35,052 nt of DNA from the IMG/VR virus record IMGVR_UViG_3300046694_000617, positions 1 to 35,052 of that record, one strand, 5' to 3'. Below are positions 2,544-10,900 of this stretch, piece after piece. Source of the stretch: a virus. Below the pieces are notes generated by a model, which had not been told where the DNA came from, made no database searches, and was given only the letters and a program-made list of their open reading frames with translations. Each line of letters begins with the position of its first letter. Position 1 is the first letter of the stretch. A program made the position numbers and the translations under genes.

Positions 2544-3088
2544 TTCGAGGCCTTGCCGGCGCGCGCCGCGGTGCTCTTGGCCTTGGCAGGCTTCGACGCC
2601 TGCGCCGGCGCTGCGGCCTTCGTGCTCGACCTGGTCTTGGCCGGCTTCGCTTTTGCCTTCGTGTTGGCTGTTGCCGGCGTTACCTCGTCCAGCTGCTCGG
2701 CCAACTGCTCGCCGTCGACCAGGTCGACCGTGGGCGCGATCTCGTCGGCCCGCGCCGCTGCCTGCTCGACCTGGTCACCCGTGACTCGGGTCTCGTCGGC
2801 CAGAACCGCTGGCTGCTCGACTTGGTCGATCAGCGTGAACCCTTGAGCCTGCAGATCCTGGTCAACCAGCTGCTCGTCATCGACCTGGTCAGCTGCTGCC
2901 GGCGTCTCGTCGGGTGGCGCCGACTTGGTGACCCAGGCGCGGTTCTCATAGACATAGCCACAGCTTTCTGCGGCAGTTTGCAGCCAGCCGGTCAGTTCGC
3001 CGCGCGGATGCACCAGGATGATCTCGGTAAGCTCACCGAGCCTGTCTGGGTTATTCAAGATGAAGTCGACCAGGTCGCCGTACTGCAT
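2540..3088 (-). CDS. C-terminal part of the parB-like protein, separated by a frameshift
   Basis: As an independent reading frame this gives 182 residues. Positions 1-55 are folded-looking (YGDLVDFILNNPDRLGEL, then a GWLQTAAESCGY helix); about 60-130 is acidic and Gln/Val-rich, with repeated DQVxxEQL units; the last 40 residues are Ala/Lys-rich and histone-H1-like, suitable for non-specific DNA binding. There is no Shine-Dalgarno sequence before the ATG at 3088 and no alternative GTG or TTG start. The same frame stays protein-like upstream to about 3226 (VDVDAVRAEAFGPAAPA and so on), exactly where the long parB frame turns into Arg/Pro/Ser-rich nonsense. I therefore read it as the tail of the parB product after a -1 shift, not as a separate gene. 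Confidence 0.7.
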   Translation of the reverse strand: MQYGDLVDFILNNPDRLGELTEIILVHPRGELTGWLQTAAESCGYVYENRAWVTKSAPPDETPAAADQVDDEQLVDQDLQAQGFTLIDQVEQPAVLADETRVTGDQVEQAAARADEIAPTVDLVDGEQLAEQLDEVTPATANTKAKAKPAKTRSSTKAAAPAQASKPAKAKSTAARAGKASK

Positions 3089-4809
3089 GGCCGATACGTC
3101 GATCGCCGGAACGTCCTGGTCGGCGGCTGCCGGCGCTTCGTTGACCAGCGGTGCGGACTCGTCGACGGCCGCAGGCGCCGCCGGCCCGAACGCCTCGGCG
3201 CGAACGGCATCGACGTCGACGCCCTCGTGGCGAAGCCGTCGTCCTCGTCGACAGTTCCGTCGCTGTTGACATCGTACGAGCAGATCTCGAGCGAGCGGCC
3301 GAGCATCACATCGATCAGCAGCAGCTGCAGCGCGCCGGCGTCCGCGTTGTCGATATAGCCGTCGAGGTCGGTGCTGACGTCGGACTCGTAGAGGTCATGC
3401 AGGGACGAGTCCAGATCGTGCTCCTGGATCACCGCCTTCGCGAACTCGCGCAGCGACGGCAGGCTCAGGCCCGTCACGCTCGCACGTTGGCGCAGTTGCT
3501 TATACAGTGCAAGTCGGTACGCGTTTTCCCCGGTGACGACCGCCTCTCGTTCTTGGCGTTTCTTTTGCTCGGCCTCTTCTTTCGCGGTGGCGCCGGGATC
3601 TGCGGCCTTGGCGGCATTCATCCTTTCCGCGTGTGCTTCGACGGTCTCGCAGGCGCCGACCTTCTCGAGCGCGGTCTGAATGTCAGCACGCTTGTACAGC
3701 GGCGTCAGGCTGCCGTCGTCCCTTTTCGCGTAGCTGGCGACAGCCGGGAGCATGTCTTCCTTCAGGTAGTCCTTGACGTCGCCGTTGTTCTTCGTCGACG
3801 GCGCATTGCGCCTGAAATACCAGAGGCCCATGTCAGCGGTCACCAGCTCGCTTTCGTGGTTCCAGCGGCGCGACAGCGTTTGCGATGCTTCGTCGCCCTC
3901 GAGGACTGGGATGCCTTGCTTGTTCGCCTGGACCAGGAGCGCTGCGCCGTGTGCCGCGCGCTTTTCCGCGAAGCAGTCGGGGTCAGTGCAGACGTTTGCA
4001 TCGATGCCTTCAAATACCTCAGGTTGGTTCCCGGTGCGCTTCGGGCACTTCGTGCATGCGCCGGCCGCGGCCAGCAACTTCGCGTCGGTTATGGAGAAGA
4101 CTGCCGTGCTCAGCTTCAACATGTATCGCCCCTGGATATGGGACGCAGCCGAGCGGTGCGACATTGGCTCGCTGCCGCGGCCATATGGCTCAAGGATTTC
4201 CTGTGCAGCTTTCGCCTGCAGCGCCGGGACCGGGATGCGAGCGATCAGCAGCGCCGTCGACGCTGACAGTTTGTTGTCCAGGAAGAGCTCGCGCACGTCG
4301 CTGCTCAGGGCGCACAGTTTGAGGCGGCCATAGATATAGGCGCGAGACTTCTTGACCTCGTCCACCAGCTGGTCTGCCGTGAAGCCGTGCTGCAGCATGA
4401 GTAGCTGGTAGCCCTCGGCCTCTTCCATCGGGTGCGGATCTTCCCGCTGCAGGTTTTCGAGGATGCGGATCTTGGCGGCGTCCAGGTCGCTGAGCTGCCG
4501 GCACAGTGCCGGAATATGGGTCTTGCCGGCGAGTTTAGATGCGCGGAACCGACGCTCGCCGGCCACGATCTCGAATTCCGCCGGCGCTTCCACGGTCGGG
4601 GTCACCGGGCGGATCAGGATCGCCTGGGCGACGCCCATTGCCTTGATGCTCTCGGCGAGTTCCTGCAGGGCCTGTTCATTGAAACGCTTACGGTTGTCCG
4701 GCGAGGCGCGCAGCTTCGCGATCTCATACAGACCATACGTTCCCTGGTCACCTACGAGCTCGTCGACGATGGTAGTTTGTTCAGTAGTGGCGAGTGCGGT
4801 CGAGGTCAT
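3055..4809 (-). CDS. parB: ParB/RepB/Spo0J-family DNA-binding protein, 3' end out of frame
   Basis: ParB-like protein. Residues about 24-110 form the ParB N-terminal (CTPase/nuclease-like) domain with GERRFRASKLAG at 84-95. The ENLQREDPHPMEEAEGY box is at 118-134, and a KorB/HTH region at about 138-195 should recognise a palindromic centromere-like site. A cysteine cluster at about 256-285 (CTKCPKR then CTDPDC) may bind zinc. No ParA ATPase is encoded nearby, so active partition is unlikely; phage ParB-like proteins may act as regulators or nucleases. It starts at an ATG preceded by GGAG and overlaps the upstream stop by ATGA. From about residue 528 the frame becomes R/P/S-rich and stops at 3055, whereas the -1 frame continues into the 2540-3088 segment. 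One restored base would give about 756 residues. Confidence 0.88.
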   Translation of the reverse strand: MTSTALATTEQTTIVDELVGDQGTYGLYEIAKLRASPDNRKRFNEQALQELAESIKAMGVAQAILIRPVTPTVEAPAEFEIVAGERRFRASKLAGKTHIPALCRQLSDLDAAKIRILENLQREDPHPMEEAEGYQLLMLQHGFTADQLVDEVKKSRAYIYGRLKLCALSSDVRELFLDNKLSASTALLIARIPVPALQAKAAQEILEPYGRGSEPMSHRSAASHIQGRYMLKLSTAVFSITDAKLLAAAGACTKCPKRTGNQPEVFEGIDANVCTDPDCFAEKRAAHGAALLVQANKQGIPVLEGDEASQTLSRRWNHESELVTADMGLWYFRRNAPSTKNNGDVKDYLKEDMLPAVASYAKRDDGSLTPLYKRADIQTALEKVGACETVEAHAERMNAAKAADPGATAKEEAEQKKRQEREAVVTGENAYRLALYKQLRQRASVTGLSLPSLREFAKAVIQEHDLDSSLHDLYESDVSTDLDGYIDNADAGALQLLLIDVMLGRSLEICSYDVNSDGTVDEDDGFATRASTSMPFAPRRSGRRRLRPSTSPHRWSTKRRQPPTRTFRRSTYRPCSTATWSTSS

Positions 4810-7304: not shown

Positions 7305-7713
7305 GCATACTGGCCCGCGCGAGGGGAGCCGTGCGCATCGCGCGCTCAAGGCCCTGCATGAGCACGGCGACATGTACGAAGCGGCCTGGATGATCAAGGC
7401 GGCCTACGACCATTCGCCATCCGAGTTCTATCGCTCCGTGGTCCAGCCGCTGCTCGGCTGGAAGCTCGTCAAGGAGCACGGCATTTCTTATCGAGTCACG
7501 CCAGCTGGCCGCGCGTGCCTGGGTGTGTCGGACGTGCCGGATGTCGAGCCGGTGATCACGCCCGGCACTTACGTCCCGCCCATGGGGCGCCCGCTGTCGG
7601 CCCAGTATCGTCCTGGGCTGCGCGTGATGCGCCCTGGTGCGCTTGATTTTCGTGAGATTCCCTCCCGCATCGGCGAACAGATCATCCAATATGGAGCGAA
7701 GGCAGCAGCGTGA
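7297..7713 (+). CDS. Hypothetical protein with winged-helix-like N-terminus
   Basis: About 138 residues from a GTG at 7297 (GGGGAG upstream; a second GTG lies at 7294). Residues about 12-75 read like a winged helix: helix RAHRALKALHEHG, helix EAAWMIKAAYDH, then PSEFYRSVVQPLLGWKLVKEHGISYRVTPAGR, where the last part resembles a wing ending in TPAGR. The tail to 138 is Pro-rich and basic. It lies between the YmfL-like gene (8-bp overlap) and the replication gene (GTGA overlap), so a role in DNA replication initiation or its regulation is plausible. No family name can be given. Confidence 0.7.
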   Translation: MAKHTGPREGSRAHRALKALHEHGDMYEAAWMIKAAYDHSPSEFYRSVVQPLLGWKLVKEHGISYRVTPAGRACLGVSDVPDVEPVITPGTYVPPMGRPLSAQYRPGLRVMRPGALDFREIPSRIGEQIIQYGAKAAA

Positions 7714-10265
7714 CGCTTGATGATTTTTCAGCAGTTGGGCGCGAAGCGCTCAACTCTATTGAGACTCTGCTGCAGGAGTGGTTCCCGAACGGCATCAGGA
7801 CAGGGCACGAGTTCTGCATTGGGTCTCGGGCGGGCGAAGCCGGGCAGTCGCTGCGAATCCGACTCAACGGCGAAAAAGCCGGCGTTTGGTGCGACTTTTC
7901 TGACGACGGCGCCGCCGGCGGCGATCTGATCTCTCTTTATGCCTTTATCCACGGCCTCCGGCCTTGGCAAGCCTGCAGAGCTATCGCCGATCGCCTCGGC
8001 ATCACAATTGCGGACGTCACGAATAGGGGAAGCGAACCCATTAAACCGTTCGCCAAGCCTGGCGCAGCACGACCGAATCCCGCGCCTGCGCCAGCGGACA
8101 AAGGGGTAGAAGCACCGGCCGAGGGCAAGAAGCGCACGCCCTGGACGCCAATTTTGCCTGTCCCGGACAGCGCAGGGCCATACCCGAAGGCGCATGTCGT
8201 CCGTGGCCGTCCCGAAGCGCATTGGGAGTACCGCAACGCCGCGGGCCAGCTGCTGGGCGTGATCTATCGTTTCCGCCGCTCGGACGGCGAGGGCAAGGAA
8301 GTGCTCCCGTGCGTGTTCGCCGAGCGAAGCGATACCAGGGCGCGTGAGTGGCGGTGGCTGGCCTTCCCCGAGCCGCGTCCGCTGTACCTGCGCGGGCCGC
8401 ATCGTCCCGATGTCCCTGTGCTGGTTGTCGAGGGCGAGAAGTGCGTCGACGCCGCGGTGTCGCTTTCCGAGATCCATGAGGCGTTCGAGGTGCTGTCGTG
8501 GCCAGGTGGCGGCAAGGCCGTCAAGAAAGCGGACTGGTCTGCGATCCGGGACCGCGATGTATTCCTGTGGGCCGATGCGGACGCAAAGGTCTACAAGGAA
8601 GGTCACGAGCGCGCCGGCCAGATCATGCCCGAGCACGAGCAGCCTGGAATGAGCGCGATGATCAAGATCGCCGAGATCCTGCGCGGCCAGAACTGCAACG
8701 TGTTCTTCGTCGATATCCCCGCACCAGGTGAGCAGCCTGACGGCTGGGACATCGCGGATCTGATCGCCGGCGGCGCCACCCAAGAAGAGGTCATCCGGTG
8801 GGCGACCAACCTGCGTCCGCAGGAGACAAGCCAGCCGGCCCCGGCAGTCGCGGCGCCGGCCGCAGCCGACCAGGTCGGCGCCGCCAGCCCGGCCGACGAC
8901 GTGCCTGACTGGGTCAACGAACAGATGTCTGGCCAGTTCGAGGGCGCTTCTACCCCTTTGCCGGCTGGCGCGGGCAAGGGTTCCCGCAGCTCCTTGCGGG
9001 ACAAGCTGATCCCGACCGCGAACGGCGGGATCAAGGGCTGCCGTGAAAACGTCTACCTGGTGATGGAAGGCGACGAGAAGCTGCGCGGCCTGGTTGGGCT
9101 GGATCTGTTCTCCGGGCTGCAGGTGAAGCTTCGCAAGACGCCCTGGCCGAGCACGCCGATCGAATGGACCGAGTCCGATGACTTCGAGCTGGGCATGTAC
9201 CTGGCCCAGAACTACGGCCTCGTCCTGGCCTCGGTGGGCGACATCGAGCGCGGCGTGGCGCAAGCGGCACGTCGTCACCAGTTCGACCCGGTGATCGACT
9301 ACTTCAACCGCTGCGCGGAAAGCTGGGATGGCCAGCAGCGTGTGGCCACGGCGCTGTCGCGCTATTGGGGCGCCGAAGATTCGGAATACCTGCGCCTGGT
9401 GTCGACGATGTTCTTCATCGGTATCGTCATGCGCGGCTACAAACCCGGCGTCAAGAACGACCACGCGCCGGTGTTCGAGGGTGGCCAGGGCCAAGGCAAG
9501 TCGACCGCTCTAAAGGTGCTCGGCGGCGATTGGTTCGCCGACACGCCGTTCAGGATGGGCGACAAGGACGGCTACCTGTCGATCCAGGGCGTGCTGCTGT
9601 ACGAGGTCGCCGAGCTGGAGCAGTTCAACCGCTCCGAGGTCACCGCCATCAAGGCGTTCATGTCCAGCACCGTTGACCGCTTCCGGGAGCCGTACGGCCG
9701 CCGGATGAAGAACGTGCCGCGCCGCTGCGCCTTTGCCGCGACGACGAACGAGGACGCCTATTTCAAGGACACGACGGGCAACCGTCGATTCTGGCCGGTG
9801 GAGACGGGGAAGCTGGACATCGAGGCGCTGAAGGTCGACCGCGACCAGCTGTTCGGCGAAGCGATCGCGCTCATGAAGGCCGGCGTGCAGTGGTGGCCGA
9901 CCTTCGAGCAGCAGCGCCGCCTGATCGACCCGATGCAGGACAGCCGCGAGATTCCGGACCCATGGCGTGGCCGGATCTGGGAGTTCCTGGAAGGGATCGA
10001 CTCCGAAGGCAAGCCGATGTCCGCCGGCCCGTTAAAACGCGTCACGGCGCGCGAGCTGCTCACCAGGGCGCTCCACTTCGAGTTGTCGAAGATCGGGCCA
10101 GCAAGGGCCGAAACGATGCGCGTAGGCGCGATCATGCGCAAGTTCGGCTGGACGAAACATCGGGAGTCCAGTGGCGCACGCGAGTGGTACTACGAGCGCC
10201 CCGTAGCGGAAGCGGAGCAAGGGGCAGACAAGGCCGGAGGGGACGATGAGCCGCTCCCGTTCTGA
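7710..10265 (+). CDS. Primase/VapE-type helicase, phage replication protein
   Basis: An 851-residue fusion. Residues 1-100 resemble the small domain preceding phage primases (HEFCIGSR, VWCDFSDDGAAGGD). About 230-365 is a Toprim-like region with VLVVEGEK and LWADADAK as the metal-binding acidic motifs. About 370-440 is an Ala/Pro linker. About 500-800 is the virulence-associated E (VapE) SF3-like ATPase, with Walker A GGQGQGKST near 591-599 and downstream LLYEVAELEQF and RRCAFAATTNEDAYFKD segments. It should make primers and unwind the phage origin. It starts with GTG overlapping the previous stop (GTGA). It is followed directly by the repeat array at 10362-10643, which is a good candidate for the site where it works. 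Confidence 0.92.
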   Translation: MTLDDFSAVGREALNSIETLLQEWFPNGIRTGHEFCIGSRAGEAGQSLRIRLNGEKAGVWCDFSDDGAAGGDLISLYAFIHGLRPWQACRAIADRLGITIADVTNRGSEPIKPFAKPGAARPNPAPAPADKGVEAPAEGKKRTPWTPILPVPDSAGPYPKAHVVRGRPEAHWEYRNAAGQLLGVIYRFRRSDGEGKEVLPCVFAERSDTRAREWRWLAFPEPRPLYLRGPHRPDVPVLVVEGEKCVDAAVSLSEIHEAFEVLSWPGGGKAVKKADWSAIRDRDVFLWADADAKVYKEGHERAGQIMPEHEQPGMSAMIKIAEILRGQNCNVFFVDIPAPGEQPDGWDIADLIAGGATQEEVIRWATNLRPQETSQPAPAVAAPAAADQVGAASPADDVPDWVNEQMSGQFEGASTPLPAGAGKGSRSSLRDKLIPTANGGIKGCRENVYLVMEGDEKLRGLVGLDLFSGLQVKLRKTPWPSTPIEWTESDDFELGMYLAQNYGLVLASVGDIERGVAQAARRHQFDPVIDYFNRCAESWDGQQRVATALSRYWGAEDSEYLRLVSTMFFIGIVMRGYKPGVKNDHAPVFEGGQGQGKSTALKVLGGDWFADTPFRMGDKDGYLSIQGVLLYEVAELEQFNRSEVTAIKAFMSSTVDRFREPYGRRMKNVPRRCAFAATTNEDAYFKDTTGNRRFWPVETGKLDIEALKVDRDQLFGEAIALMKAGVQWWPTFEQQRRLIDPMQDSREIPDPWRGRIWEFLEGIDSEGKPMSAGPLKRVTARELLTRALHFELSKIGPARAETMRVGAIMRKFGWTKHRESSGAREWYYERPVAEAEQGADKAGGDDEPLPF

Positions 10266-10660
10266 CCAACGAGCCGGCGCCATGCCGGCGTCTCACCAGG
10301 GATCGTGGGCGCATTTTGCGCAGGCGGAAAAGGTGATGGCGTCGACCAGGTATGCCGGCTCGTCCAACCCAGGACGGCTAACCGTCCAACCTTGCAATTT
10401 TGAGGTTAGACGGCTGAAACCCGCATGGATACTAGCCTCGTCCAACCGTCCAACCTCGCCAACCGGGCCGCGCCCGCACGTACACCCGCGTACGCGTATA
10501 CGTGTGCGACGAGTCGGAAGGCCAGTTCTGCCGCTGGCAAAACAAAAAAACAGGTTAGACAGGTTAGGAGGTTAGACAAACCCAGCATCCATGCGGGTCC
10601 CAGCCGTCCAACCTCTAGGACCAACCATTTTGAGGTTAGACGGATTGAGGAGGAAAGGCG
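10266..10660 (+). other. Non-coding interval with repeat array, candidate replication origin
   Basis: No convincing gene is present. A reading frame from 10246 to 10575 exists, but its composition is arbitrary. The interval holds direct copies of GGTTAGAC at 10404, 10553, 10570 and 10634. Inverted copies, GTCCAACC, lie at 10362, 10384, 10440, 10448 and 10606. One-mismatch copies lie at 10562 and 10619. A 17-bp perfect direct repeat starts at 10397 and 10627, and a GGACGG/CCGTCC hairpin starts at 10372. A palindrome CGCGTACGCG lies at 10487-10496, followed by GTATAC. Repeats of this kind next to a primase/helicase gene suggest iterons, but a binding protein is not identified. Confidence 0.6.
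10402..10615. repeat. 34-bp imperfect inverted repeat enclosing 146 bp
   Basis: The left arm is 10402-10435 and the right arm is 10582-10615; 29 of 34 positions pair, including a perfect 12-bp core (10419-10430 with 10587-10598). All five differences are A in the left arm against G in the complement of the right arm. It could extrude as a cruciform or fold in single-stranded DNA or RNA, and it contains two of the GGTTRGAC-type motifs. Confidence 0.8.
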
Positions 10661-10900
10661 ATGACGAAGGGAGGTTTGCGGGACGTGATGCCGGTGACGG
10701 CTCAGCTGATCGATGAATACCGGGCAGTCTTCGGCACGGACAACATCGACAAGGTGCTGCGGAGGGCGATGAAGGGCGAGCCGGTGTTTTACGCAGAGGA
10801 GAACGGGCATACGTTCGGGACGCCCAGCCCGGCTCGGGTCAGGGTGCAGTGGGATGAGCGAGGGCTGCCGTATGTGATCGAGCCGGCCAAGCAGAAGTAG
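10661..10900 (+). CDS. Hypothetical small early protein
   Basis: A 79-residue protein preceded by a strong GGAGGAAA Shine-Dalgarno. The N-terminal half has helical DVMPVTAQLIDEYRAVFG and IDKVLRRAMKGEP segments. The C-terminal half (FYAEENGHTFGTPSPARVRVQW) is beta-like. Related short proteins of this shape are common in phages between replication and late-control genes, but I cannot name a function. It is isolated from the replication gene by the repeat array and may be translated from the same early transcript. Confidence 0.78.
   Translation: MTKGGLRDVMPVTAQLIDEYRAVFGTDNIDKVLRRAMKGEPVFYAEENGHTFGTPSPARVRVQWDERGLPYVIEPAKQK

What the first reader, a model, noticed from the sequence alone, without database searches (positions are those of the whole stretch)
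10362..10643. Iteron-like array beside the primase/helicase gene, a candidate origin
Four exact GGTTAGAC and five exact GTCCAACC (complement GGTTGGAC) copies, plus two with a single change, are packed into 280 bp without a gene. A 17-bp direct repeat (10397 and 10627), a 34-bp inverted repeat and nested CG-rich palindromes add to this. The array follows the primase/VapE gene directly. Origins of phages with this replication type are seldom described.
Basis: partly seen in the sequence, partly recalled or inferred. Interest (0 to 1): 0.65.

Follow-up and report, generated by a model that had tools for sequence, protein, structure and literature searches.

The report
Phage replication origin beside vapE helicase
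The repeat cluster is very probably the place where this bacterial virus starts copying its DNA: it stays with the virus's own helicase-primase gene in dozens of distantly related viruses, and it carries two extra conserved features, a folded hairpin and an alternating CG-rich stretch, not described in the origin papers I read.

Summary
All nine exact GGTTRGAC sites of the 35-kb window lie in 280 bp of non-coding DNA 3' of vapE (chance: 1.4 sites per window). They form a large, nearly symmetrical array: two inverted 44-bp modules, each with an iteron at both ends, on either side of an alternating purine-pyrimidine tract and an A-tract. A 46-nt hairpin lies between the vapE stop codon and the array.

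The array is conserved in place and spacing in every close relative. An unbiased DNA scan of viral contigs with the module alone led back to vapE homologues down to about 39% identity. In two lineages cargo genes have come between vapE and the array, and the hairpin stays with the array. Distant vapE phages carry different iterons in the same 3' gap. The VapE C-terminus is predicted to be a winged helix; the nearest solved structure is PriRep1 bound to dsDNA.

Best reading: the phage's replication origin, recognised by the VapE C-terminal domain, working like SaPI/PICI rep-ori modules. Replication itself is untested. I class it as a new variant of a known kind. The covarying hairpin and the Z-prone tract are the less expected parts.

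The parts
7710..10265 (+). vapE: helicase-primase of 851 aa, proposed initiator
   Evidence: PF05272 VapE-like domain, E 2e-71; PHROG DNA helicase/primase families; nearest solved structure 7pds, PriRep1 with dsDNA
9921..10262 (+). part of vapE coding the C-terminal winged helix, proposed iteron-binding domain
   Evidence: predicted strand-helix-helix-strand-strand; fold hits 7pds then winged-helix proteins, weak scores
10292..10337 (+). conserved 46-nt hairpin element (CCAGGGATCG ... GCGGAAAAGG)
   Evidence: 31 distinct sequences, 97.3% of cells paired, covariation above all 500 shuffles; model R1 match 69.9 bits; no Rfam match
10362..10369 (-). iteron GGTTGGAC
10384..10391 (-). iteron GGTTGGAC
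10404..10447 (.). left 44-bp module, with iterons 10404-10411 (+) and 10440-10447 (-) at its ends
10448..10455 (-). iteron GGTTGGAC
10469..10511 (.). alternating purine-pyrimidine (Z-prone) tract at the centre
   Evidence: score 19.5; only 0.9% of same-length stretches of the window reach it
10536..10552 (.). A-tract, 71% A+T, proposed part of the opening region
   Evidence: the most A+T-rich 25-mer of the array starts at 10542; 0.8% of window 25-mers are at least as rich
10553..10560 (+). iteron GGTTAGAC
10570..10613 (.). right 44-bp module (inverted copy), with iterons 10570-10577 (+) and 10606-10613 (-)
10634..10641 (+). iteron GGTTAGAC

Best explanation
The 10292-10641 region is the phage's replication origin and VapE is its cognate self-loading initiator helicase-primase. 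The VapE C-terminal winged helix binds the GGTTRGAC iterons. Because the iterons stand in two inverted sets about 100 bp apart, two VapE hexamers are loaded head to head, open the central tract (alternating CG/CA plus A-tract), and move apart, giving bidirectional replication. Shown here: the array, its symmetry, its conservation and linkage to vapE, the concerted change of its copies, and the homology of VapE to PriRep1. Inferred: binding, loading, melting, direction and the role of the hairpin.
For: Same array at the same place 3' of vapE in 29 of 29 relatives, with fixed spacings. Scan of viral contigs with the module alone: 55 loci with at least three iterons in 500 bp, 50 of them with a vapE homologue in the stored stretch; the other five end close to the array or belong to the cargo-insertion lineage. 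Copies within a locus change together: base 5 same-state pairs 504 against 429 +/- 12 in permutations, 0 of 5000; in L029 most copies are shifted to TGTTGGAC-type; left and right arms are more alike within a locus than between loci (0.798 v 0.742, 0 of 5000). Iterons of other sequence in the vapE 3' gap of distant phages: PS3, U5, LPPA36, phiFL4A, Bob and phiSa2wa, Spn1, CL31, YeP5, RcMcDreamy. VapE residues 430-851 match 7pds at TM 0.76-0.79. SaPI Rep recognises, with its C-terminal domain, an iteron origin directly downstream of its gene (PMC7581432). PICI origins have two iteron sets on either side of an AT-rich region, 3' of rep (PMC6092414).
Against: No replication or binding data. GC skew shows no clear switch at the site. 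The central segment is mostly G+C-rich; only the 17-bp A-tract is A+T-rich, unlike the AT-rich centre described for PICIs. The concerted change could in part reflect gene conversion, and relatedness of the loci is not corrected for. The winged-helix fold match to 7pds taken alone is weak (E 0.06). Some vapE phages (Mica, two Bacteroides phages) show no clear iterons in the gap.
Confidence: 0.86

Rival explanations
1. The array is a centromere-like parS site for the phage's ParB (gene at 3055-4809).
For: A ParB family protein is encoded in the window, and inverted repeats are common at such sites.
Against: ParB was found in only 15 of 23 array-bearing records (records may be fragments). The array sits 5.5 kb from parB and tracks vapE.
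Confidence: 0.04
2. The array is an operator or control region for CI, CII or a downstream transcription switch.
For: It lies in an intergenic region of an early operon of a temperate phage.
Against: CI matched in 9 and CII in 13 of 22 array-bearing records. No promoter-like or terminator-like site. Some 280 bp of nine sites in two inverted sets is unusual for an operator.
Confidence: 0.04
3. The array is a packaging (pac) site.
For: The terminase genes begin 2.8 kb downstream.
Against: TerS matched in only 10 of 22 array-bearing records, some as low as 27% identity, while the array is kept.
Confidence: 0.02
4. The array is selected as a long RNA hairpin in the transcript that runs through vapE.
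For: The + strand folds far better than shuffles (z -8.7).
Against: Between the arms, A.C mismatches (151) outnumber G.U (85) on the + strand, the reverse of what selection on + strand RNA would give. Inverted binding sites explain the fold. A minus-strand RNA is not excluded by this count.
Confidence: 0.04

Closest known systems
SaPI / PICI rep-ori replicons (PriRep1, SaPIbov1, EcCICFT073)
   Same: Self-loading helicase gene followed by an iteron origin in two sets; homologous helicase (7pds) with a C-terminal DNA-binding domain.
   Different: Here in a full temperate phage; iterons stand at both ends of 44-bp inverted modules; the centre is mostly alternating CG/CA with only a short A-tract; a covarying hairpin precedes the array.
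Streptococcus thermophilus phage Sfi21 origin (PER element, 302 bp)
   Same: Non-coding phage origin in the replication module; an S. thermophilus phage sampled here (CHPC1282) has repeats 3' of its helicase gene.
   Different: Different repeats, AT-rich, no alternating CG tract in the phage examined.
SCCmec Cch2 and its putative origin
   Same: Helicase whose C-terminal domain binds direct repeats just downstream of its gene (PMC7581432).
   Different: Different helicase branch and only three short iterons.
Satellite phage P4 alpha protein with ori/crr
   Same: Primase-helicase with a C-terminal origin-binding domain and iterons (own knowledge, not tested here).
   Different: Different iterons and layout; no P4 sequence was compared here.

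Membership tests
SaPI/PICI-type rep-ori replicon | Self-loading Rep helicase related to PriRep1 | tested here: met
   7pds E 1e-45 by sequence; TM 0.76-0.79 over residues 430-851
SaPI/PICI-type rep-ori replicon | Origin immediately 3' of the rep gene | tested here: met
   Array starts 96 bp after the vapE stop in the window; kept in all 29 relatives; 3' gap also holds iterons in distant phages
SaPI/PICI-type rep-ori replicon | Two sets of iterons flanking the opening region | tested here: met
   Two sets, 10362-10455 and 10553-10641, related by inversion
SaPI/PICI-type rep-ori replicon | AT-rich region between the sets | tested here: inconclusive
   17-bp A-tract at 71% A+T, but the rest of the centre is an alternating G+C-rich tract
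SaPI/PICI-type rep-ori replicon | C-terminal domain of Rep binds the iterons | not testable with these tools
   Winged helix predicted; binding not measured
PICI (as an element) | Phage-inducible satellite dependent on a helper phage | tested here: not met
   Window encodes its own small and large terminase and lysogeny genes: it is a phage and shares only the replicon type
DnaA-dependent origin | DnaA boxes | tested here: not met
   No TTWTNCACA in the window
Rfam-described RNA element (for the hairpin) | Match to a curated family | tested here: not met
   No match at E up to 1

The most novel reading that the evidence does not exclude
The origin is a compound cassette in which a structured hairpin (primer, loading or regulatory RNA) and a Z-DNA-prone tract are working parts of initiation by VapE helicases, the tract being shared by vapE phages of several bacterial phyla.
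Probability: 0.3. Interest if true: 0.68.

Novelty: new variant of a known kind. Interest (0 to 1): 0.52.

Why it matters
VapE helicase-primases occur in over a thousand deposited phage records, and in the ones opened here the origin was not annotated. A rule that the origin lies in the 3' gap of vapE, with lineage-specific iterons, makes these origins findable by computation and testable with a simple plasmid assay. The hairpin that moves with the array, and the alternating tract, raise a direct question about how such helicases open DNA.

Tried and rejected
ParB, CI, CII and TerS as the array's partner: each was found in only part of the array-bearing records. Records are linear and may be fragments, so this lowers those readings without excluding them. 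A + strand RNA hairpin spanning the array: A.C exceeds G.U. DnaA origin: no box. Telomere-type palindrome: considered because of the TACGCG centre, rejected because the window carries an ordinary tyrosine integrase and two relatives lie inside long Duganella contigs. GC skew: uninformative. My first pattern for the hairpin box was two bases too long and found nothing; the corrected one gave 46 loci. My first structure for the box was out of register; the RNAalifold structure was used instead. A literature search for the 8-mer and one for vapE origins gave nothing relevant. The alternating tract is not universal: it tops its locus in VarioGold, Aval, U5, PS3, phiFL4A, Gardnerella AB1, Bob, NatCom_6392, NatCom_29765, Javan453 and YeP5, but not in Mica, two Bacteroides phages, phiSa2wa, Spn1, CHPC1282, CL31 or RcMcDreamy. 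In phiFL4A the top stretch is mainly TA steps, so it is a weak case.

Full report
Observation. The nine exact GGTTRGAC sites of the window are all between 10362 and 10641; shuffles give 1.41 per window. Four read GGTTAGAC on the + strand and five read GGTTGGAC on the - strand. The 17-bp direct repeat is exact, and the inverted repeat is 63 nt at 76%. The layout is close to symmetrical about 10508: two 44-bp modules in inverted orientation, each with an iteron at both ends, further iterons outside and inside, and between them an alternating purine-pyrimidine tract followed by an A-tract.

Surroundings. The window is an IMG/VR virus record with integrase, ParB-like protein, CI and CII-like regulators, VapE and terminases. 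The array lies between vapE (7710-10265) and a small gene (10661-10900) that is kept in L004.

Conservation. A protein search gave 26 viral and 3 genome loci with 56-86% identical VapE (two are Duganella chromosomal contigs, L032 is a Burkholderiaceae MAG). Every one has GGTTRGAC sites within 500 bp 3' of vapE, with hardly any elsewhere in the locus. Spacings are fixed: the two iterons of a module start 36 bp apart, and outer pairs are about 20 and 28 bp apart. The alignment is A1.

Unbiased scan. The module GGTTNGACGGCNGNANNCCGC alone was sought in all viral contigs: 67 loci. Of these, 55 have at least three iterons in 500 bp, and 50 of the 55 hold a vapE homologue in the stored stretch, down to about 39% identity. 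The remaining five end near the array or belong to the cargo lineage described below. Twelve loci with fewer than three clustered iterons are a mix of truncated stretches and probable chance matches.

Cargo insertion. In L052 and in L095 (L075 and L080 share the L095 arrangement) other genes, in L052 including a P22-type antirepressor and a Fic-like protein, stand between vapE and the array. The array and a decayed form of the hairpin box stay together, away from the vapE 3' end (the L052 model match is weak, E 0.13, but in the expected place). The array is therefore not simply the 3' end of the vapE mRNA.

Concerted evolution. Base 5 (A or G) is more uniform within a locus than expected (504 v 429 +/- 12 same-state pairs, 0 of 5000). 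L029 has shifted most copies to TGTTGGAC-type. Left and right arms are more alike within a locus (0.798) than between loci (0.742; 0 of 5000). Relatedness among loci is not corrected for. This is what one binding protein reading all copies would produce; gene conversion could contribute.

DNA rather than + strand RNA. The + strand of the array folds strongly (z -8.7), but between the arms A.C mismatches (151) exceed G.U (85), so pairing in a + strand transcript is not what is preserved. + strand iterons carry A more often than - strand iterons (56 of 121 v 20 of 149; Fisher p 2.5e-9 without correction for relatedness); I cannot explain this.

Initiator. VapE residues 430-851 were predicted at mean pLDDT 86. 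The best fold matches are the six chains of 7pds, PriRep1 with dsDNA, TM 0.76-0.79, and phmmer gives the same entry at E 1e-45. The last 114 residues form a winged helix, again nearest to 7pds and then to winged-helix regulators, at weak E-values. SaPI Rep proteins use the C-terminal domain to recognise an iteron origin directly downstream of the gene (PMC7581432), and PICI origins have two iteron sets beside an AT-rich region 3' of rep (PMC6092414).

Distant relatives. In sampled phages whose matched VapE regions are about 27-41% identical, the 3' gap of vapE holds other iterons, in most cases in both orientations: GGGGTGAC (PS3), GTGGGACA (U5, LPPA36), ATGGATAC (phiFL4A), CTGCAACA (Bob), TGATGCAACA (phiSa2wa), ATCGGTAG (Spn1), CGGGACAA (CL31), AGACAACC (YeP5) and CTGAGCGG (RcMcDreamy). 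VarioGold and Aval have shorter inverted repeats in the gap. The origin-beside-vapE layout therefore looks general, with lineage-specific iterons. The S. thermophilus phage Sfi21 origin is an experimentally supported non-coding phage origin (cited in PMC6356513).

Extra parts. (a) The hairpin 10292-10337: 31 distinct sequences, 12 pairs, 97.3% of cells paired, 28 cells with changes on both sides against 8.3 +/- 4.2 in shuffles. No Rfam match. Model R1 finds it in the roughly 40% identity clade, where in several members the loop is itself an iteron pair, and twice in tandem in L054. (b) The alternating tract is the strongest of its locus in all 16 array-bearing relatives tested and among the top 0.9% of stretches in the window; in 11 of 19 named distant phages it also tops its locus, so it is common but not universal.

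Verdict. Origin of replication, recognised by VapE, at confidence 0.86. It works like a SaPI/PICI rep-ori module but is in a full phage, so it is not a PICI. Replication, binding and the roles of the hairpin and tract are untested.

Noticed in passing
window 10292-10337: Covarying 46-nt hairpin between the vapE stop and the array, without an Rfam match; it stays with the array when cargo genes separate it from vapE.
   Followed up: partly
window 10469-10511; L106, L107, L109, L113, L115, L116, L122, L124: Alternating purine-pyrimidine (Z-prone) tract in the vapE 3' gap of many vapE phages, including AT-rich Gram-positive ones.
   Followed up: partly
window 10362-10641 and relatives: + strand iterons carry A at base 5 more often than - strand iterons; arms show more A.C than G.U on the + strand. 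Strand-biased mutation or a minus-strand RNA are possible; unexplained.
   Followed up: no
L052:2900-6400, L095:2400-4200: Cargo genes (antirepressor, Fic-like, unknown) inserted between vapE and the origin.
   Followed up: partly
L106:5093-5240, L107:6153-6290: VarioGold and Aval share a different conserved stretch (GCAACAAACGCGCCGT ... GTGCGGTAGCGGGGA) between vapE and their repeats.
   Followed up: no
L054:3933-4041: Two tandem copies of the hairpin box.
   Followed up: no
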